Of a stretch of DNA of 64,000 bases, positions 57,040-63,160 are shown piece after piece. Each line of letters begins with the position of its first letter. The stretch's first letter is position 1. The stretch comes from Pseudomonas leptonychotis (GTDB lineage: Bacteria; Pseudomonadota; Gammaproteobacteria; Pseudomonadales; Pseudomonadaceae). Location: the NCBI RefSeq assembly GCF_004920405.1, contig NZ_RFLV01000001.1:1054001-1118000 (forward strand), read 5' to 3'. The position numbers were made by a program, and so were the translations under genes. The notes under the pieces were generated by a model, which was not told the DNA's origin, did no database searches, and was given only the letters and a program-made list of their open reading frames with translations.

Positions 57040-58718
57040 ACTGGCTGCCCCTTGAGCACCTGCTGCTCGAAGCCTACCCAGGTCGCGCAGTAACCGCGGA
57101 TCTGAATCACGCCCAGCTGCGCCAGCATGCCCTGCAGCTGGCGGCTGAGCTGCAAAGCCGTGGCGTACAGCGCTTGGCGCTGTACCTCGACGATGCCGCT
57201 GAGCTGGCAATTGCCCTGCTGGCCGCCTGGCGTGCCGGGATTACCGTGCTGCTGCCCGCCGATGCCCAGCCACAGACCCGCCAGCGCATGAGTACGCAAT
57301 GCGACCTGTGGCTGGACAGCTCAGGCGTCGCTACGTTTGATGGCCTGCTTAACGCCGACAGCGCTGCGCTGCCGCCGGCCCCGCTTGATCTCGACCAGTG
57401 CCGGCTGACCCTGTGCACCTCCGGTTCCAGCGGCGAAGCCAAGCTGATCGACAAATCCCTGCGCCAGCTAGCCAATGAAGTCACGGCCCTGGAACAACTG
57501 TGGGGCGAGCAACTGGGCAGCGCGACCATCCTTGGCAGCGTCGCCACCCAACATATCTATGGCTTGCTGTTTCGCGTGCTGTGGCCGCTGTGCGCCGGCC
57601 GCGCCTTTCTGCGCCGTGCCCAGCCGTTCCCCGAAGATTTGCAGCGCGAAAGCCTGGCAACCGGCACTGCTTTCGTCTGGGTGGCCAGCCCCGCGCTATT
57701 AAAAAGAATGGGCGATAACCTCAACTGGCCGGAGCTGCGTGCGGTGCGCCAGGTGTTTTCCTCTGGCGGCGCGCTGCCAGCTGAAACCGCTGCCGAACTG
57801 CACGGCCTACTTGGTCAATGGCCCACGGAAATCTACGGCAGTTCGGAAACCGGCGGCATTGCCTGGCGTCAGGGCGGCGAGCTATGGACGCCATTCGCCG
57901 ATGTCGAGCTTGGGCAAAACGCCGAAGGTGCGCTGCACTTGACGTCGCCCTATCTGCCAGCCGGCCATCGCGAGCAAACCGCCGATGCGGTCGAGTTGCA
58001 GGCCGATGGTCGCTTCGCCCTGCGCGGCCGCCTGGACCGGATTATCAAACTGGAAGAAAAGCGTATCTCCCTGCCCATGCTCGAACAGGCGCTGAGCCGC
58101 CATGAATGGCTCAGTGATGCGCGCCTGGGCGTGGTGCAGGAAGGCCGCGCCTACCTTGGCGCGCTGGTGGCCTTGAGCCCGGCCGGCTTGCATGCGCTGC
58201 GCAACCAGGGCCGCAAGACCGTCACCGAAACCCTGCGCCGCCACCTGGCCGACCATTGCGAAGCCATCGCCCTGCCGCGTCGCTGGCGGCTGCTCGCGCA
58301 GCTGCCCTACAACAACCAGGGCAAGCTGGCGCAAGCATCGGTGGAAGCACTGCTGGCCGAACCGCGGCCGACCCAGGTGGAACCGCTGTCGGCAGTCGAG
58401 CAGGACGGTGAATGGTTGTTGGAGCTGGATGTACCGCTCGACCTCGCACATTTCACCGGCCACTTTCCGCAAACCCCGGTGTTGCCAGGCGTAGTCCAGG
58501 TTGACTGGGCGCAACAGCTGGCGCGCCAGCTGATTACGGATCTGCCGCCACGCTTCAGCGGTATGGAAGTGTTGAAATTTCAGCAACTGGTTCGCCCCGG
58601 TGACCGCCTGCAACTGACCCTGCGTTTCGACGCACAGCGCAACAAGCTGTACTTCACCTTCCGCAACGGCGAAGCCGCCTGCTCGTCCGGACGGATTCTG
58701 CTGGGGCCAGCTCAATGA
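57036..58718 (+). CDS. Acyl-ACP/CoA ligase fused to a hotdog dehydratase (aryl polyene)
   Basis: A 560-residue two-domain protein. The adenylating domain (about 1-450) has the P-loop [12 protein letters not shown] at about 127-138, [15 protein letters not shown] near 266 and the hinge region [14 protein letters not shown] near 330. It should activate an aryl carboxylic acid and load it on an ACP. The C-terminal part (about 455-560) is a FabZ/FabA-like hotdog with [19 protein letters not shown], a dehydratase-type His loop. Fusion places starter loading and dehydration in one chain. A repeat element separates it from the next gene. Confidence 0.88.
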
Positions 58719-58727
58719 AGTGCTTTG

Positions 58728-58812
58728 GTAGGTTGGCGTTGAGCGCAGCGATACCCAACAGAGTGGCGATGGGTATCGCGCGGCTCAGCCTGCGCGGCCC
58801 GATCCATCCTAC
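58728..58812. repeat. Interspersed repeat inside the aryl polyene operon
   Basis: Starts GTAGGTTGGCGTTGAGCG and ends GATCCATCCTAC; the ends GTAGG / CCTAC are inverted. It contains GCGATACCCAAC, also found in the repeat at 62471. It fills the 107-base gap between the ligase and the glycosyltransferase, in an operon where most genes otherwise overlap. Confidence 0.75.
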
Positions 58813-58825
58813 GGGGCGGCGATAG

Positions 58826-59560
58826 ATGCATAAGCCTTGCGCGGTGATCCCGGTCTACAACCACGAGCACGCGCTGCCCGTGGTGGTCGCGGCCCTGCAC
58901 GCGGCCGGCCTGCCCTGTGTGCTGGTAGACGACGCTTCAAGCCCGGCTTGCGCGGCGGTGATGGATCAGTTGGCCACACAGCCCGACACCCACCTGCTGC
59001 GTCTGGCCGTCAATCAGGGTAAGGGCGGTGCGGTTATGGCCGGCCTGCGTGAAGCCGCGCACTTGGGTTTCAGCCATGCCTTACAGGTAGACGCCGACGG
59101 CCAGCATGACCTCAGTGACCTGCCGCGCTTTATCCAAGCCTCGCAAGTCGCACCCCAGGCGTTGATCTGTGGCTACCCGCAGTACGACGAGAGCGTGCCT
59201 AAGGGTCGCCTCTATGCCCGCTACCTGACCCACGTGTGGGTGTGGATCAACACCCTGTCGCTGAGCATCCGCGACTCCATGTGTGGCTTTCGCGTCTATC
59301 CACTGCCGGCCACCCTCGCCTTGATCGACTCGGTCAGCCTCGGCAAACGCATGGACTTCGACACCGAAGTCCTGGTACGCCTGGCCTGGCGCAACCAGCC
59401 CATGCAGTGGCTACCGACCAAGGTGCATTACCCGCTGGACGGCCTCTCGCACTTTCGTCTGTGGCACGACAATGCCCTGATCTCGAAGATGCACACCAAG
59501 CTGTTTTTCGGCATGTTGCTGCGCGCGCCGCAGATCCTCTGGCGCAGGTGGCGCAGATGA
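58826..59560 (+). CDS. Glycosyltransferase family 2 (aryl polyene)
   Basis: A 244-residue GT-A enzyme. AVIPVYNHEHALPVVVAALH at the N-terminus, CVLVDDASSPACA and ALQVDADGQHD (the DxD metal site) are clear. DSMCGFRVYPLP follows as the acceptor-side motif. It resembles dolichol-phosphate mannosyltransferase-like enzymes and probably adds a sugar while the polyene is attached to its lipid. It ends in an ATGA overlap with the LpxL-like gene. In some aryl polyene clusters, as I recall, these two activities are fused. Confidence 0.9.
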   Translation: MHKPCAVIPVYNHEHALPVVVAALHAAGLPCVLVDDASSPACAAVMDQLATQPDTHLLRLAVNQGKGGAVMAGLREAAHLGFSHALQVDADGQHDLSDLPRFIQASQVAPQALICGYPQYDESVPKGRLYARYLTHVWVWINTLSLSIRDSMCGFRVYPLPATLALIDSVSLGKRMDFDTEVLVRLAWRNQPMQWLPTKVHYPLDGLSHFRLWHDNALISKMHTKLFFGMLLRAPQILWRRWRR

Positions 59561-60492: not shown

Positions 60493-62014
60493 TCCCATCG
60501 TGTTTGGCGAACGCCCCTTGAGCATCGAGCAGGTTGTCGCCCTGGCCAGCCGCGGCGCCCCTTCTCAACTGCAAAGCGATGCCGCCTACCGCGAAAAAAT
60601 CGCTAAAGGTGCGCGCTTCCTCGACAGCCTGCTGGACAAGGAGGGGGTGATCTACGGCGTCACCACCGGCTACGGCGACTCCTGCGTGGTGGCCGTACCA
60701 CTGCATCAGGTCGAAGCGCTGCCGCGTCACCTTTACACCTTCCACGGCTGCGGCCTGGGTAAACTGCTGGATGAGCAAGCGACCCGCGCGGTCCTGGCGG
60801 CACGTTTGCAGTCGCTGTGTCAGGGCGTTTCCGGCGTGCGTGTGGAATTGCTCGAACGCCTGCAAGCCTTTATCGAATTTGATGTGCTGCCGTTGATCCC
60901 GGAAGAAGGCTCGGTCGGCGCCAGCGGCGACCTCACGCCGCTGTCCTACGTGGCCGCCACCCTCAGCGGTGAGCGCGAGGTGATGTTCAAAGGCGAACGC
61001 CGCAGCGCCGCCGACGTGCATGCCGCGCTTGGCTGGACGCCGCTGACCCTGCGCCCCAAAGAAGCCCTGGCGCTGATGAACGGCACCGCGGTGATGACCG
61101 CTTTGGCCTGCCAGGCTTATTCGCGCGCCGACTACCTGCTCAAGCTGGCCACGCGCATCACCGCACTCAATGTGGTGGCGCTGGAAGGCAACCCGGAACA
61201 CTTCGACGAGCGCCTGTTCGCCGCTAAGCCGCATCCGGGGCAGATGCAAGTCGCCGCCTGGCTGCGTCAAGACCTGGCCATCGACGCACCGACCGCGCCG
61301 CTGCACCGCCTGCAAGACCGCTACTCGCTGCGCTGTGCACCGCACGTACTCGGCGTACTGGCCGACAGCCTGGGCCTGCTGCGCCAATTTATCGAGATCG
61401 AGCTGAACAGCGCCAACGACAACCCGCTGATCGACGCCGAGGCCGAGCGCGTGCTGCACGGCGGACACTTCTACGGCGGGCATATCGCCTTCGCCATGGA
61501 CAGCCTGAAAAACCTGGTGGGCAACGTCGCCGACCTGCTCGACCGCCAGCTCGCCCTGCTGGTCGATACCCGCTACAACCATGGCCTACCGAGCAATCTG
61601 TCGGGTGCGCCGAGCGTCAGCGCCATGATCAACCACGGCTTCAAGGCTGTGCAGATCGGCACCAGCGCCTGGACCGCCGAGGCGCTGAAAAACACCATGC
61701 CGGCCAGCGTGTTCTCACGCTCCACCGAGTGCCACAACCAGGACAAAGTGAGCATGGGCACCATCGCCGCCCGCGACGCCCTACGCAGCCTGGAGCTGAC
61801 CGAACAGGTCGCCGCCGCCACCCTGCTGGCCGCCAACCAGGGCGTGTGGCTACGCCAGCGCGACGGCAAAATCAACATCCCGGCGCCGGTCGCCGCCATG
61901 CGTGAACAGCTGGCCGTGGACTTCCACCCGGTGATCGAAGACCGCGCCCTGGAAGCCGAGCTACGCCTGTGTCTGGTGCGTATCCGCGACCAGCATTGGG
62001 GCCTTTATGCGTAG
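60473..62014 (+). CDS. Aromatic amino acid ammonia-lyase (HAL/TAL family, aryl polyene)
   Basis: A 513-residue lyase of the histidine/tyrosine ammonia-lyase family. The self-forming MIO cofactor comes from Ala150-Ser151-Gly152 in SVGASGDLTPLSYVAA. FYGGHIAFAMDSLKN, NHGLPSNLSGAPSVSAM and FSRSTECHNQDKVSMG complete the active site. It most likely makes 4-coumarate (or cinnamate) from tyrosine (or phenylalanine) as the starter for the ligase downstream-acting step. The substrate-selectivity pair reads Phe90-His91 (TFHGCGLG). ATG 60473 overlaps the preceding gene by 20 nt; ATG 60467 is also possible. Confidence 0.9.
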   Translation: MTTHQPDPIVFGERPLSIEQVVALASRGAPSQLQSDAAYREKIAKGARFLDSLLDKEGVIYGVTTGYGDSCVVAVPLHQVEALPRHLYTFHGCGLGKLLDEQATRAVLAARLQSLCQGVSGVRVELLERLQAFIEFDVLPLIPEEGSVGASGDLTPLSYVAATLSGEREVMFKGERRSAADVHAALGWTPLTLRPKEALALMNGTAVMTALACQAYSRADYLLKLATRITALNVVALEGNPEHFDERLFAAKPHPGQMQVAAWLRQDLAIDAPTAPLHRLQDRYSLRCAPHVLGVLADSLGLLRQFIEIELNSANDNPLIDAEAERVLHGGHFYGGHIAFAMDSLKNLVGNVADLLDRQLALLVDTRYNHGLPSNLSGAPSVSAMINHGFKAVQIGTSAWTAEALKNTMPASVFSRSTECHNQDKVSMGTIAARDALRSLELTEQVAAATLLAANQGVWLRQRDGKINIPAPVAAMREQLAVDFHPVIEDRALEAELRLCLVRIRDQHWGLYA

Positions 62015-62432
62015 CAAGGGCGTATTGCAGACCGAAATCGAGCTGGTGGTGCCGTTCTTCGACGTCGACATGATGGACGTGGTCTGGCACGGCCATTACG
62101 TCAAATACTTCGAAGAGGCGCGCTGCGCCCTACTCGACAAACTCGGCCACAACTACCGACAAATGCGCGACGCCGGCTACGCCTGGCCGGTCATCGACCT
62201 GCAGGTGCGCTATATCCGTGGCGCGCAATTCGGCCAGCGCATCACCGTGCGCGCCGACCTGGTGGAGTGGGAAAACCGCCTGAAGATCAACTACCTGGTC
62301 AGCGACGCCGCTACAGGCGAGCGCATGACTCGCGGCAGCAGCGTGCAAGTAGCAGTGGAAATCGCCACCCGCGAGATGCAGTTTGTTTCACCCAAGGTGC
62401 TGACCGACGCCGTTGAAAAGGTGCTGGCGTGA
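62007..62432 (+). CDS. Thioesterase, YbgC/4HBT type (aryl polyene)
   Basis: A 141-residue hotdog thioesterase. VPFFDVDMMDVVWHGHYVKYFEEAR is the family signature, read in pieces: the Asp of DMMDVVWHG is the expected catalytic residue, and HYVKYFEEAR forms the central helix. It would release or edit acyl-ACP intermediates. It overlaps the ammonia-lyase by 8 nt. Its stop shares bases with the possible GTG start of the next frame. Confidence 0.88.
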   Translation: MRSKGVLQTEIELVVPFFDVDMMDVVWHGHYVKYFEEARCALLDKLGHNYRQMRDAGYAWPVIDLQVRYIRGAQFGQRITVRADLVEWENRLKINYLVSDAATGERMTRGSSVQVAVEIATREMQFVSPKVLTDAVEKVLA

Positions 62433-62470
62433 ACAATCTTTGGGCCGGATTAAGCCGTGCGCTCAGCACC

Positions 62471-62582
62471 GTAGGTTGGGTTGAGCGTCGCGATACCCAA
62501 CGCGGTGCTGGCCTCGTAGTCTGGATGAAATCCGGGAAACGTTCTCCGGCCTTACCCCGCTCCCGGATTGCATCCGGGCTAC
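62471..62582. repeat. Two adjacent interspersed repeats at the front of the LolA-like gene
   Basis: The first part (62471-62502) reads GTAGGTTGGGTTGAGCG then GCGATACCCAAC, a truncated relative of 58728. The second (62516-62582) starts GTAGTCTGGATGAAATCCGG and ends CCCGGATTGCATCCGGGCTAC less one base, inverted ends of a repeat type common in Pseudomonas. Both are open in the reading frame of the following gene. Confidence 0.8.
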
Positions 62583-63160
62583 AGCTGGCGTTTCTGCTGC
62601 TTCTGGCATCCGATGCTTATGCCTTCGACCTCGACCAGCTCAGCACCCAGCTGGCCAAGCCGGCCGTGGTGCGCGGTCCGCTGATTCAGGAAAAACACCT
62701 GCGCGCCTTGCCGCAGCCGCTGACCAGCCGTGGCCAGTTCGTTCTCAGCCGCGATCTCGGCCTGCTTTGGCAGCTGCAAAGCCCGCTCAAGCAGGATTAC
62801 CGCATCGACAACCAGGGCATTGCCAAGCGCACGTCCAGTGGCTGGCAACAGCAGCCCGGACAGGATGTCGCGGCGCAACAGAGCCGGCTGTTTCTCGCCG
62901 TACTCAAGGGCGATCACAGTGGCCTGGCGCGGGATTTCGAGCTGCAATTGAGCGGCACATCTGAAGCCTGGCAGCTACGCCTGGTGCCGAACTCGGTGTT
63001 GCTCAAACAGATATTCAGCCGCATCCAGATCGACGGCGGCGCGCTGGTGCAGCGCATCGAGCTGCATGAAACCCAGGGCGACCACAGCGTGCTGCGCTTG
63101 CCTGAAAGCCAGGCCGGCGATGCTTTGAGCGAGCAGGAGCAACGCGACTTTGCGCAGTGA
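62525..63160 (+). CDS. LolA-like outer membrane carrier protein (aryl polyene)
   Basis: A 211-residue periplasmic protein of the LolA-fold group found in aryl polyene clusters, probably carrying the lipid-linked pigment from the exporter towards the outer membrane. The signal peptide is KSGKRSPALPRSRIAS, then the hydrophobic LQLAFLLLLAS, cut after AYA. The mature part begins FDLDQLSTQLAKPAVVRG. ATG 62525 lies inside a repeat element, which thus supplies the basic front of the signal peptide. The frame is open back to GTG 62429, which would give an unusual 54-residue leader; the ancestral start was probably there or close to it. Confidence 0.82.
   Translation: MKSGKRSPALPRSRIASGLQLAFLLLLASDAYAFDLDQLSTQLAKPAVVRGPLIQEKHLRALPQPLTSRGQFVLSRDLGLLWQLQSPLKQDYRIDNQGIAKRTSSGWQQQPGQDVAAQQSRLFLAVLKGDHSGLARDFELQLSGTSEAWQLRLVPNSVLLKQIFSRIQIDGGALVQRIELHETQGDHSVLRLPESQAGDALSEQEQRDFAQ

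What the first reader, a model, noticed from the sequence alone, without database searches (positions are those of the whole stretch)
62429..62640. A repeat element supplies the start codon and signal-peptide front of the LolA-like gene
Two palindromic repeats (62471-62502 and 62516-62582) lie in frame before the hydrophobic core of the signal peptide. The second repeat, a type seen between genes elsewhere, contains ATG 62525 and encodes the basic segment KSGKRSP and on to RIASG. So an interspersed repeat has been turned into coding sequence with a plausible secretion function. The old start was probably GTG 62429, overlapping the thioesterase stop in the usual operon style.
Basis: partly seen in the sequence, partly recalled or inferred. 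Interest (0 to 1): 0.7.

Follow-up and report, generated by a model that had tools for sequence, protein, structure and literature searches.

The report
Mobile repeats translated inside signal peptide
Short mobile DNA repeats appear to have been read straight into the front end of a secreted lipid-carrier protein in this Pseudomonas, and the same spot of the same gene has been enlarged again and again in its relatives, every time without breaking the reading frame.

Summary
A GTAG-type REP (62471-62502) and a REPIN, an inverted REP pair (62516-62582), lie in frame between GTG 62429 and the signal-peptide core of a LolA-like gene of an aryl-polyene-type operon; both are dispersed repeats of this genome. 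The repeats look coding and inserted: P. peli, 94% identical in the mature protein, has a plain 19-residue signal peptide. But the repeat probably did not supply the start codon: GTG 62429 keeps a Shine-Dalgarno match and the overlap with the thioesterase stop, while ATG 62525 has no such match and lies in a predicted hairpin stem. The larger finding is a landing site across the genus. In 199 of 199 distinct junctions examined (two read by eye) the region stays in frame with the start at the thioesterase stop and has no in-frame stop; 89 are enlarged, by up to about 1 kb, and inserts tested in five genomes are dispersed repeats there. A spacer that bears a REP in this genome uses all three phases in 30 genomes. 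Intragenic REPs are known; repeated colonisation of one signal peptide's n-region was not found in my searches. No N-terminus was measured.

The parts
62007..62432 (+). thioesterase (apeK-type) upstream gene; its stop TGA 62430-62432 overlaps the lolA-like start
   Evidence: Pfam 4HBT_2 E=1e-12; gene-order name from passages of PMC8253772
62419..62423 (+). Shine-Dalgarno-like AGGTG before GTG 62429
   Evidence: 5-nt match to the anti-SD
62429..63160 (+). LolA-like gene (apeL-type), 243 aa from GTG
   Evidence: Pfam LolA_3 E=1.2e-8, above cut-off; NCBIfam LolA2_flexi 44.6 bits, below its cut-off of 125
62429..62623 (+). predicted 65-residue signal peptide (cleavage after AYA inferred)
   Evidence: in-frame translation; mature start set by comparison with orthologues; no signal-peptide predictor was available
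62471..62502 (+). GTAG-type REP, read as VGWVERRDTQR
62516..62582 (+). REPIN: two inverted GTAG REPs, read as VVWMKSGKRSPALPRSRIASGL; holds ATG 62525
62523..62578 (+). direct repeats 62523-62536 and 62565-62578, 42 nt apart; orthologue P0004 lacks 14 residues (42 nt) at this place
62579..62608 (+). hydrophobic core LQLAFLLLLA, overlapping the last bases of the REPIN and running on from it

Best explanation
The n-region of this LolA-like preprotein is a tolerated landing site for mobile palindromic repeats. Translation starts at the old GTG/ATG coupled to the thioesterase stop, reads through whatever repeat has landed there, and continues into the hydrophobic core. Sec and signal peptidase then remove the whole front, so the repeat-encoded residues (about 37 codons here from the start of the REP to the end of the REPIN, up to about 330 extra codons elsewhere) never reach the mature protein. 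Insertions that break the frame or bring a stop are removed by selection, which leaves an in-phase but sequence-tolerant record of successive repeat invasions. Shown: presence and absence of inserts in close relatives, dispersed repeats where tested, phase and open frame, strong constraint on the mature part. Inferred: start-site use, export and cleavage, removal by selection, and transposition by RAYT-type enzymes.
For: 199 of 199 distinct junctions examined are in phase with the start at the thioesterase stop (197 by script; 2 read by eye). No in-frame stop in the 87 scripted enlarged regions; over all 89 the other forward frames have 389 and 167 stops (the 7 counted in frame come from the two mis-anchored loci). 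Insert-bearing and insert-free close relatives: window against P. peli L098; L165 against L040. Inserts are dispersed repeats in the 5 genomes where I searched the insert in its own genome: G000, G291, G376, G048, G006. Window-type REPINs are open and in frame in 8 of 8 lolA copies (confirmed at DNA level on both strands) against 9 of 29 fetched dispersed copies, p=6e-4; fluorescens-type units have stops in 0 of 43 in lolA against 5 of 20 dispersed, p=0.002. Control spacer phases 6/19/5. Mature dN/dS 0.06-0.13 against 0.37-0.79 for the N-terminal region in six groups. 18 of 87 have no internal start in the range searched.
Against: No proteomics. 69 of 87 enlarged regions contain an internal ATG/GTG/TTG, and in 20 of 87 one of these has a 5-nt SD match, so a second start could be used. 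Related sequences are not independent, so the p-values are optimistic. The fluorescens-type REPIN is open in 15 of 20 fetched dispersed copies and of fixed length in all 20, so its open frame in lolA is only weakly informative. In 6 of 87 the most hydrophobic stretch is not within 30 residues of the mature start. Not every one of the 89 enlarged regions was shown to be a repeat. The AasS/GT2 spacer of the same operon also keeps one phase in 17 of 17 long cases although 6 of 17 carry in-frame stops, so phase can be kept without an uninterrupted fusion.
Confidence: 0.72

Rival explanations
1. One reading: ATG 62525 inside the REPIN is the working start, so the repeat supplies start codon and basic n-region (33-residue signal peptide).
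For: ATG 62525 is in frame and gives a textbook n-region; database entries start some orthologues at what looks like the equivalent codon, e.g. P0007, P0009, P0013.
Against: No SD match (0 nt); the codon is paired in the predicted hairpin; P0004 lacks it and keeps the frame; upstream phase and openness would not be kept; 18 of 87 enlarged orthologues have no internal start in the range searched.
Confidence: 0.1
2. Dual use: ribosomes coupled from the thioesterase read the repeat ORF mainly to avoid polarity or keep coupling, while the exported LolA comes from internal starts near the core, mostly in long-insert species.
For: 69 of 87 enlarged regions have some internal start, 20 of 87 with SD match; the AasS/GT2 spacer keeps phase while carrying stops in 6 of 17, and in the window a 36-codon ORF ends TAG directly before GT2's ATG.
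Against: Coupling alone does not need an uninterrupted in-frame fusion in 199 of 199; the window's internal ATG has no SD match.
Confidence: 0.12
3. The in-phase pattern is mutational: repeats insert or change in multiples of three without selection.
For: fluorescens-type REPIN units are 102 nt in 20 of 20 fetched dispersed copies; the AasS/GT2 spacer is also in one phase, 17 of 17.
Against: Window-type REPIN copies vary: frame broken in 11 of 20 in G291 and 4 of 9 in the own genome; the control spacer uses all phases; 17 insert clusters without mutual blastn similarity are all in phase.
Confidence: 0.04
4. Gene-model artefact: the repeats are untranslated spacer, as Di Nocera et al. suggested for most N-terminal REPs of P. 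putida and others (PMC3733652).
For: Section 15 of that paper says most REPs in the 5' end of P. putida, C. koseri and S. [quoted passage not shown]
Against: In the window no ATG/GTG/TTG lies in frame between ATG 62525 and the mature part, so at least the REPIN from ATG 62525 on must be translated if the protein is exported from a usual start; frame statistics as above.
Confidence: 0.02

Closest known systems
Intragenic GTAG REPs (Di Nocera et al. 2013, PMC3733652; section 15 read whole, other passages read)
   Same: GTAG-tagged REPs, singly or as dimers, lying inside ORFs; REP-encoded residues; recB of two Xanthomonas species hit at about the same site
   Different: Those authors judged most N-terminal cases in P. 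putida, C. koseri and S. maltophilia to be probably not coding. Here orthologues of one Pseudomonas gene show N-terminal repeats kept in frame, several repeat families at one site, and far longer encoded stretches than the 43-82 residues they report for clusters
Rickettsia palindromic elements (Ogata et al., seen only through passages of PMC10969869 and PMC3733652)
   Same: palindromic repeats in frame in coding genes; the element itself carries an ORF; N-terminally decorated proteins said to be expressed in vivo
   Different: RPEs hit many unrelated genes; here one presumably cleaved segment of one gene is hit by different families, some also as in-frame tandem arrays (5 units in L202)
REPINs of Pseudomonas (Bertels and Rainey 2011, PMC3116915; passages read)
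   Same: inverted REP doublets dispersed in the genome
   Different: reported as mainly extragenic, only 14 of the most abundant 16-mers overlapping genes in SBW25; here apparently coding
Long signal peptides of autotransporters (Hiss and Schneider 2009, PMC2805444; abstract and outline only)
   Same: exceptionally long signal sequences
   Different: there a common domain organisation was described; here the added segment is lineage-specific repeat sequence

Membership tests
REPIN | two REPs in inverted orientation with a short spacer | tested here: met
   22-nt arms, 86% complementary, 23-nt spacer
REPIN | dispersed multi-copy | tested here: met
   9 further distinct near-full-length copies among the 27 distinct places fetched, out of 54 matches to the whole stretch
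REPIN | copies mainly between genes | tested here: inconclusive
   17 of 27 distinct fetched REP/REPIN places have no overlapping ORF of 150 codons or more, 10 have one that was not checked
REPIN | GTAG tag at both outer ends (GTAG-class REPs) | tested here: met
   GTAG 62516 and CTAC 62582
REPIN | RAYT (Y1 transposase) gene flanked by the same REP in the genome | tested here: inconclusive
   4 Y1_Tnp matches in the own genome; exact REP and REPIN patterns absent from their loci of about 3 kb; diverged copies not sought
GTAG REP (first repeat) | GTAG plus short palindrome, dispersed | tested here: met
   many copies of about 30 nt at 83-97% identity
Rickettsia palindromic element | sequence homology to an RPE family | not tested
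   works like one; no claim of membership
LolA-like ApeL of aryl polyene clusters | LolA-like domain | tested here: met
   PF19574 LolA_3 34.9 bits, cut-off 23
LolA-like ApeL of aryl polyene clusters | thioesterase upstream, exporter downstream, acyl-ACP synthetase/dehydratase and acyltransferase in the same run | tested here: inconclusive
   thioesterase, AMP-binding/ApeI-like, lyase, acyltransferase and glycosyltransferase domains found; the downstream frame, cut by the window end, gave no Pfam hit in its 281 aa
Sec signal peptide | hydrophobic core and small residues at -3 and -1 | tested here: met
   LQLAFLLLLASDAYA before F66; 87 of 87 scripted enlarged orthologues pass a simple -3/-1 test; no dedicated predictor
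Sec signal peptide | cleavage and export | not testable with these tools
   needs experiment

The most novel reading that the evidence does not exclude
A signal peptide's n-region serves as a safe harbour where mobile repeats can be coding yet harmless, because signal peptidase deletes them from every mature molecule. This lets one gene carry up to about 350 codons before and including an internal signal sequence that still exports the protein, and may let REPINs that carry an open peptide (as the fluorescens type does) spread inside operons that have no intergenic space.
Probability: 0.4. Interest if true: 0.75.

Novelty: new variant of a known kind. Interest (0 to 1): 0.6.

Why it matters
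It bears on a doubt in the literature, whether REPs at the 5' ends of ORFs in Pseudomonas and others are coding or annotation errors (PMC3733652), by showing one locus where an open in-frame reading is kept in every orthologue examined. It also gives a natural series, from 0 to about 330 extra codons before one signal peptide with mature proteins as close as 94%, to test how long a cytoplasmic front Sec will tolerate. Database entries place the start of this gene at different codons, so gene models here deserve care.

Tried and rejected
First scripts translated in a wrong frame; corrected. Two junctions looked out of frame (L214, L246): their thioesterase gene has an apparent one-base shift near its 3' end that mis-anchored my stop; read in three frames they are open and in phase. 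The first intended control gene was poorly conserved and not used; the second was, and which of its 29 relatives carry a repeat was not checked. Using the AasS/GT2 spacer as a neutral control failed: it also keeps one phase (17 of 17 spacers of 100 nt or more), though 6 of 17 have in-frame stops. A strict REP pattern found nothing in the own genome because I composed it badly; a better one hits 13 other fetched loci of the own genome, overlapping ones included. Amino-acid-level selection on the repeats: dN/dS 0.37-0.79 for the whole N-terminal region, core included, so little beyond an open frame seems required. Units of the fluorescens type were counted in lolA by a peptide pattern, so some may be missed. 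No structure prediction was run.

Literature: searches listed no report of repeats in this gene or of repeated REP insertion into a signal peptide; only open-licence PMC papers are held, so this is not proof.

Full report
WHAT IS THERE. The window's LolA-like gene starts at GTG 62429, overlapping the thioesterase stop TGA 62430-62432, and runs to 63160. Its first 65 codons read VNNLWAGLSRALST-VGWVERRDTQR-GAGL-VVWMKSGKRSPALPRSRIASGL-QLAFLLLLASDAYA (the first codon would be read as M). VGWVERRDTQR is a GTAG-type REP (62471-62502). VVWMKSG...RIASGL is a REPIN, two REPs in inverted order (62516-62582; arms). A search of the own genome (4.39 Mb) with 62455-62600 gave 54 matches, itself included. 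The frame has two usual start codons before the mature protein, GTG 62429 and ATG 62525, and none after ATG 62525. If the protein is exported from a usual start codon, at least the REPIN from ATG 62525 on is translated.

WHICH START. GTG 62429 has a 5-nt Shine-Dalgarno match (AGGTG) and the stop overlap; ATG 62525 has 0 nt, and its three bases are paired in the predicted RNA fold, which none of 200 shuffles equals, z -3.47. The orthologues below argue further for the upstream start.

ORTHOLOGUES. A protein search gave 1462 relatives, the best 120 listed. The 25 best, read in full, already show a mosaic: REP plus REPIN (P0001-P0003), REP plus a REPIN shortened by 14 residues, the distance between its direct repeats (P0004), REPIN without REP (P0005), REP without REPIN (P0006, P0011, P0021), a different long repeat (P0010, P0012, P0014-P0017), and no repeat (P0023). 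I then took DNA: 51 loci from genome contigs, loci of matches in 115 relatives (69 with a match) and in 398 genomes of the genus (313 with a match, of which only higher-scoring, listed ones were fetched), and stretches. Of 237 such loci, 226 had a thioesterase match and at least 55% mature identity; 8 were dropped for lower identity (26-51%; 3 of those 8 were in another phase) and 3 for lack of a thioesterase match. These 226 are 199 distinct sequences.

THE FRAME RESULT. The distance from thioesterase stop to mature start is 44-83 nt in 110 sequences and 104-1049 nt in 89. In 197 of 199 it keeps the phase of the start at the stop codon and has no in-frame stop. The other two (L214, L246) were mis-anchored by an apparent one-base shift in the thioesterase gene and, read directly, are open and in phase too. 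In the scripted count over the 89 enlarged regions (23,689 nt) the LolA frame has 7 stops, all from those two mis-anchored loci; the other forward frames have 389 and 167, the reverse frames 174, 76 and 266. The four bases at the overlap are ATGA in 145, GTGA in 38, CTGA in 15 (12 of these 15 have an ATG directly before, letters) and GTAG in 1 (the mis-anchored L246).

CONTROLS. (a) A co-directional spacer that bears a REP in the window genome (gene pair of L018) has phases 6/19/5 in 30 genomes; I did not check which of the other 29 carry repeats. (b) Dispersed copies of the window-type REPIN, read in the register used in lolA, are open and in frame in 1 of 9 distinct fetched own-genome copies and in 8 of 20 fetched from G291 (62 matches there, both strands counted), against 8 of 8 in lolA (p 6e-4). 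A DNA-level scan of the 199 regions on both strands found no further ones beyond these 8, and all 8 REPINs, and the REP starts found in 5 regions, begin at a codon boundary, the register in which the TAG of GTAG is not read. (c) The fluorescens-type REPIN is open in 15 of 20 fetched dispersed copies of G048 and always 102 nt, so it is a weaker test; still 0 of 43 lolA units has a stop against 5 of 20 (p 0.002). The p-values ignore relatedness. (d) Against me: the AasS/GT2 spacer of the same operon keeps one phase in 17 of 17 spacers of 100 nt or more, although 6 of 17 contain in-frame stops. It may be a second case, partly by translational coupling, and shows that phase alone is not proof of a continuous fusion; the absence of stops is what sets lolA apart.

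INDEPENDENCE. The enlarged regions fall into 17 clusters (plus-strand blastn, E up to 1e-4, at least 45 nt, single linkage), and 41 family changes (32 presence/absence changes) are needed on a single-gene tree of the mature part (no support values used). With one chance in three per event, 17 events alone would give about 8e-9. Not every cluster was shown to be a repeat. Where I searched an insert in its own genome it was a dispersed repeat, 5 of 5: G000, G291, G376, G048, G006. L165 carries the window-type REPIN in a signal peptide whose close relative L040 (VKRLLGAALAFILLGTAQLALA) has none, although L040's genome G064 has copies elsewhere. L202 holds five in-frame tandem units of the fluorescens-type REPIN and L199 four.

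FUNCTION. The mature protein is strongly conserved in the six repeat-bearing groups compared (dN/dS 0.06-0.13), while the N-terminal region drifts (0.37-0.79). This fits a segment that must be open and in frame and little more, followed by a working core: 87 of 87 scripted regions pass a simple -3/-1 residue test, and in 81 of 87 the most hydrophobic 11-mer is within 30 residues of the mature start. Internal starts cannot be excluded for many: 69 of 87 have some ATG/GTG/TTG in the range searched, 20 of 87 one with an SD match. P. peli L098, 94% identical in the mature part, has VKRLLAGLGFWLLSQNALA, so the repeats of the window lineage are recent or were lost there.

COMPARISON. In-frame palindromic repeats are known: RPEs of Rickettsia (passages of PMC10969869) and intragenic GTAG REPs (PMC3733652). 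The latter paper doubted that most N-terminal REPs of P. putida and two other species are coding. Bertels and Rainey describe REPINs as mainly extragenic (passages of PMC3116915). The gene names apeK, apeL and apeM follow the E. coli cluster table (passages of PMC8253772). I therefore file this as a new variant of a known kind.

Noticed in passing
window 58715-58828: The AasS/GT2 junction of the same operon also holds a REP-like match; a 36-codon ORF starts at the overlap with the AasS stop and ends TAG directly before GT2's ATG. Long orthologous spacers keep one phase (17 of 17) but 6 of 17 have in-frame stops.
   Followed up: partly
L332-L351 (G048): The fluorescens-type REPIN is 102 nt in 20 of 20 fetched dispersed copies and open in 15, spelling a shared peptide like VGASLLAKVVNDNAG..GALRFFASKLAPT; the REPIN itself looks ORF-friendly.
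   Followed up: partly
L202:629-1264, L199, L043, L211: In-frame tandem arrays of 5, 4, 2 and 2 REPIN units within the LolA-like N-terminal region.
   Followed up: partly
L214, L246: Thioesterase gene with an apparent one-base shift near its 3' end in two genomes; error or real is open.
   Followed up: no
G000:C1:2079156-2081675: Three Y1 transposase (PF01797) matches within 2.6 kb, a fourth at C1:389211-389549; no exact patterns of the two repeats in their loci of about 3 kb.
   Followed up: partly
L149:2032-3084: The enlarged region of G376 (1049 nt) is a mosaic of several dispersed repeats, including a window-type REPIN and an element of about 200 bp present twice in inverted orientation.
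   Followed up: partly
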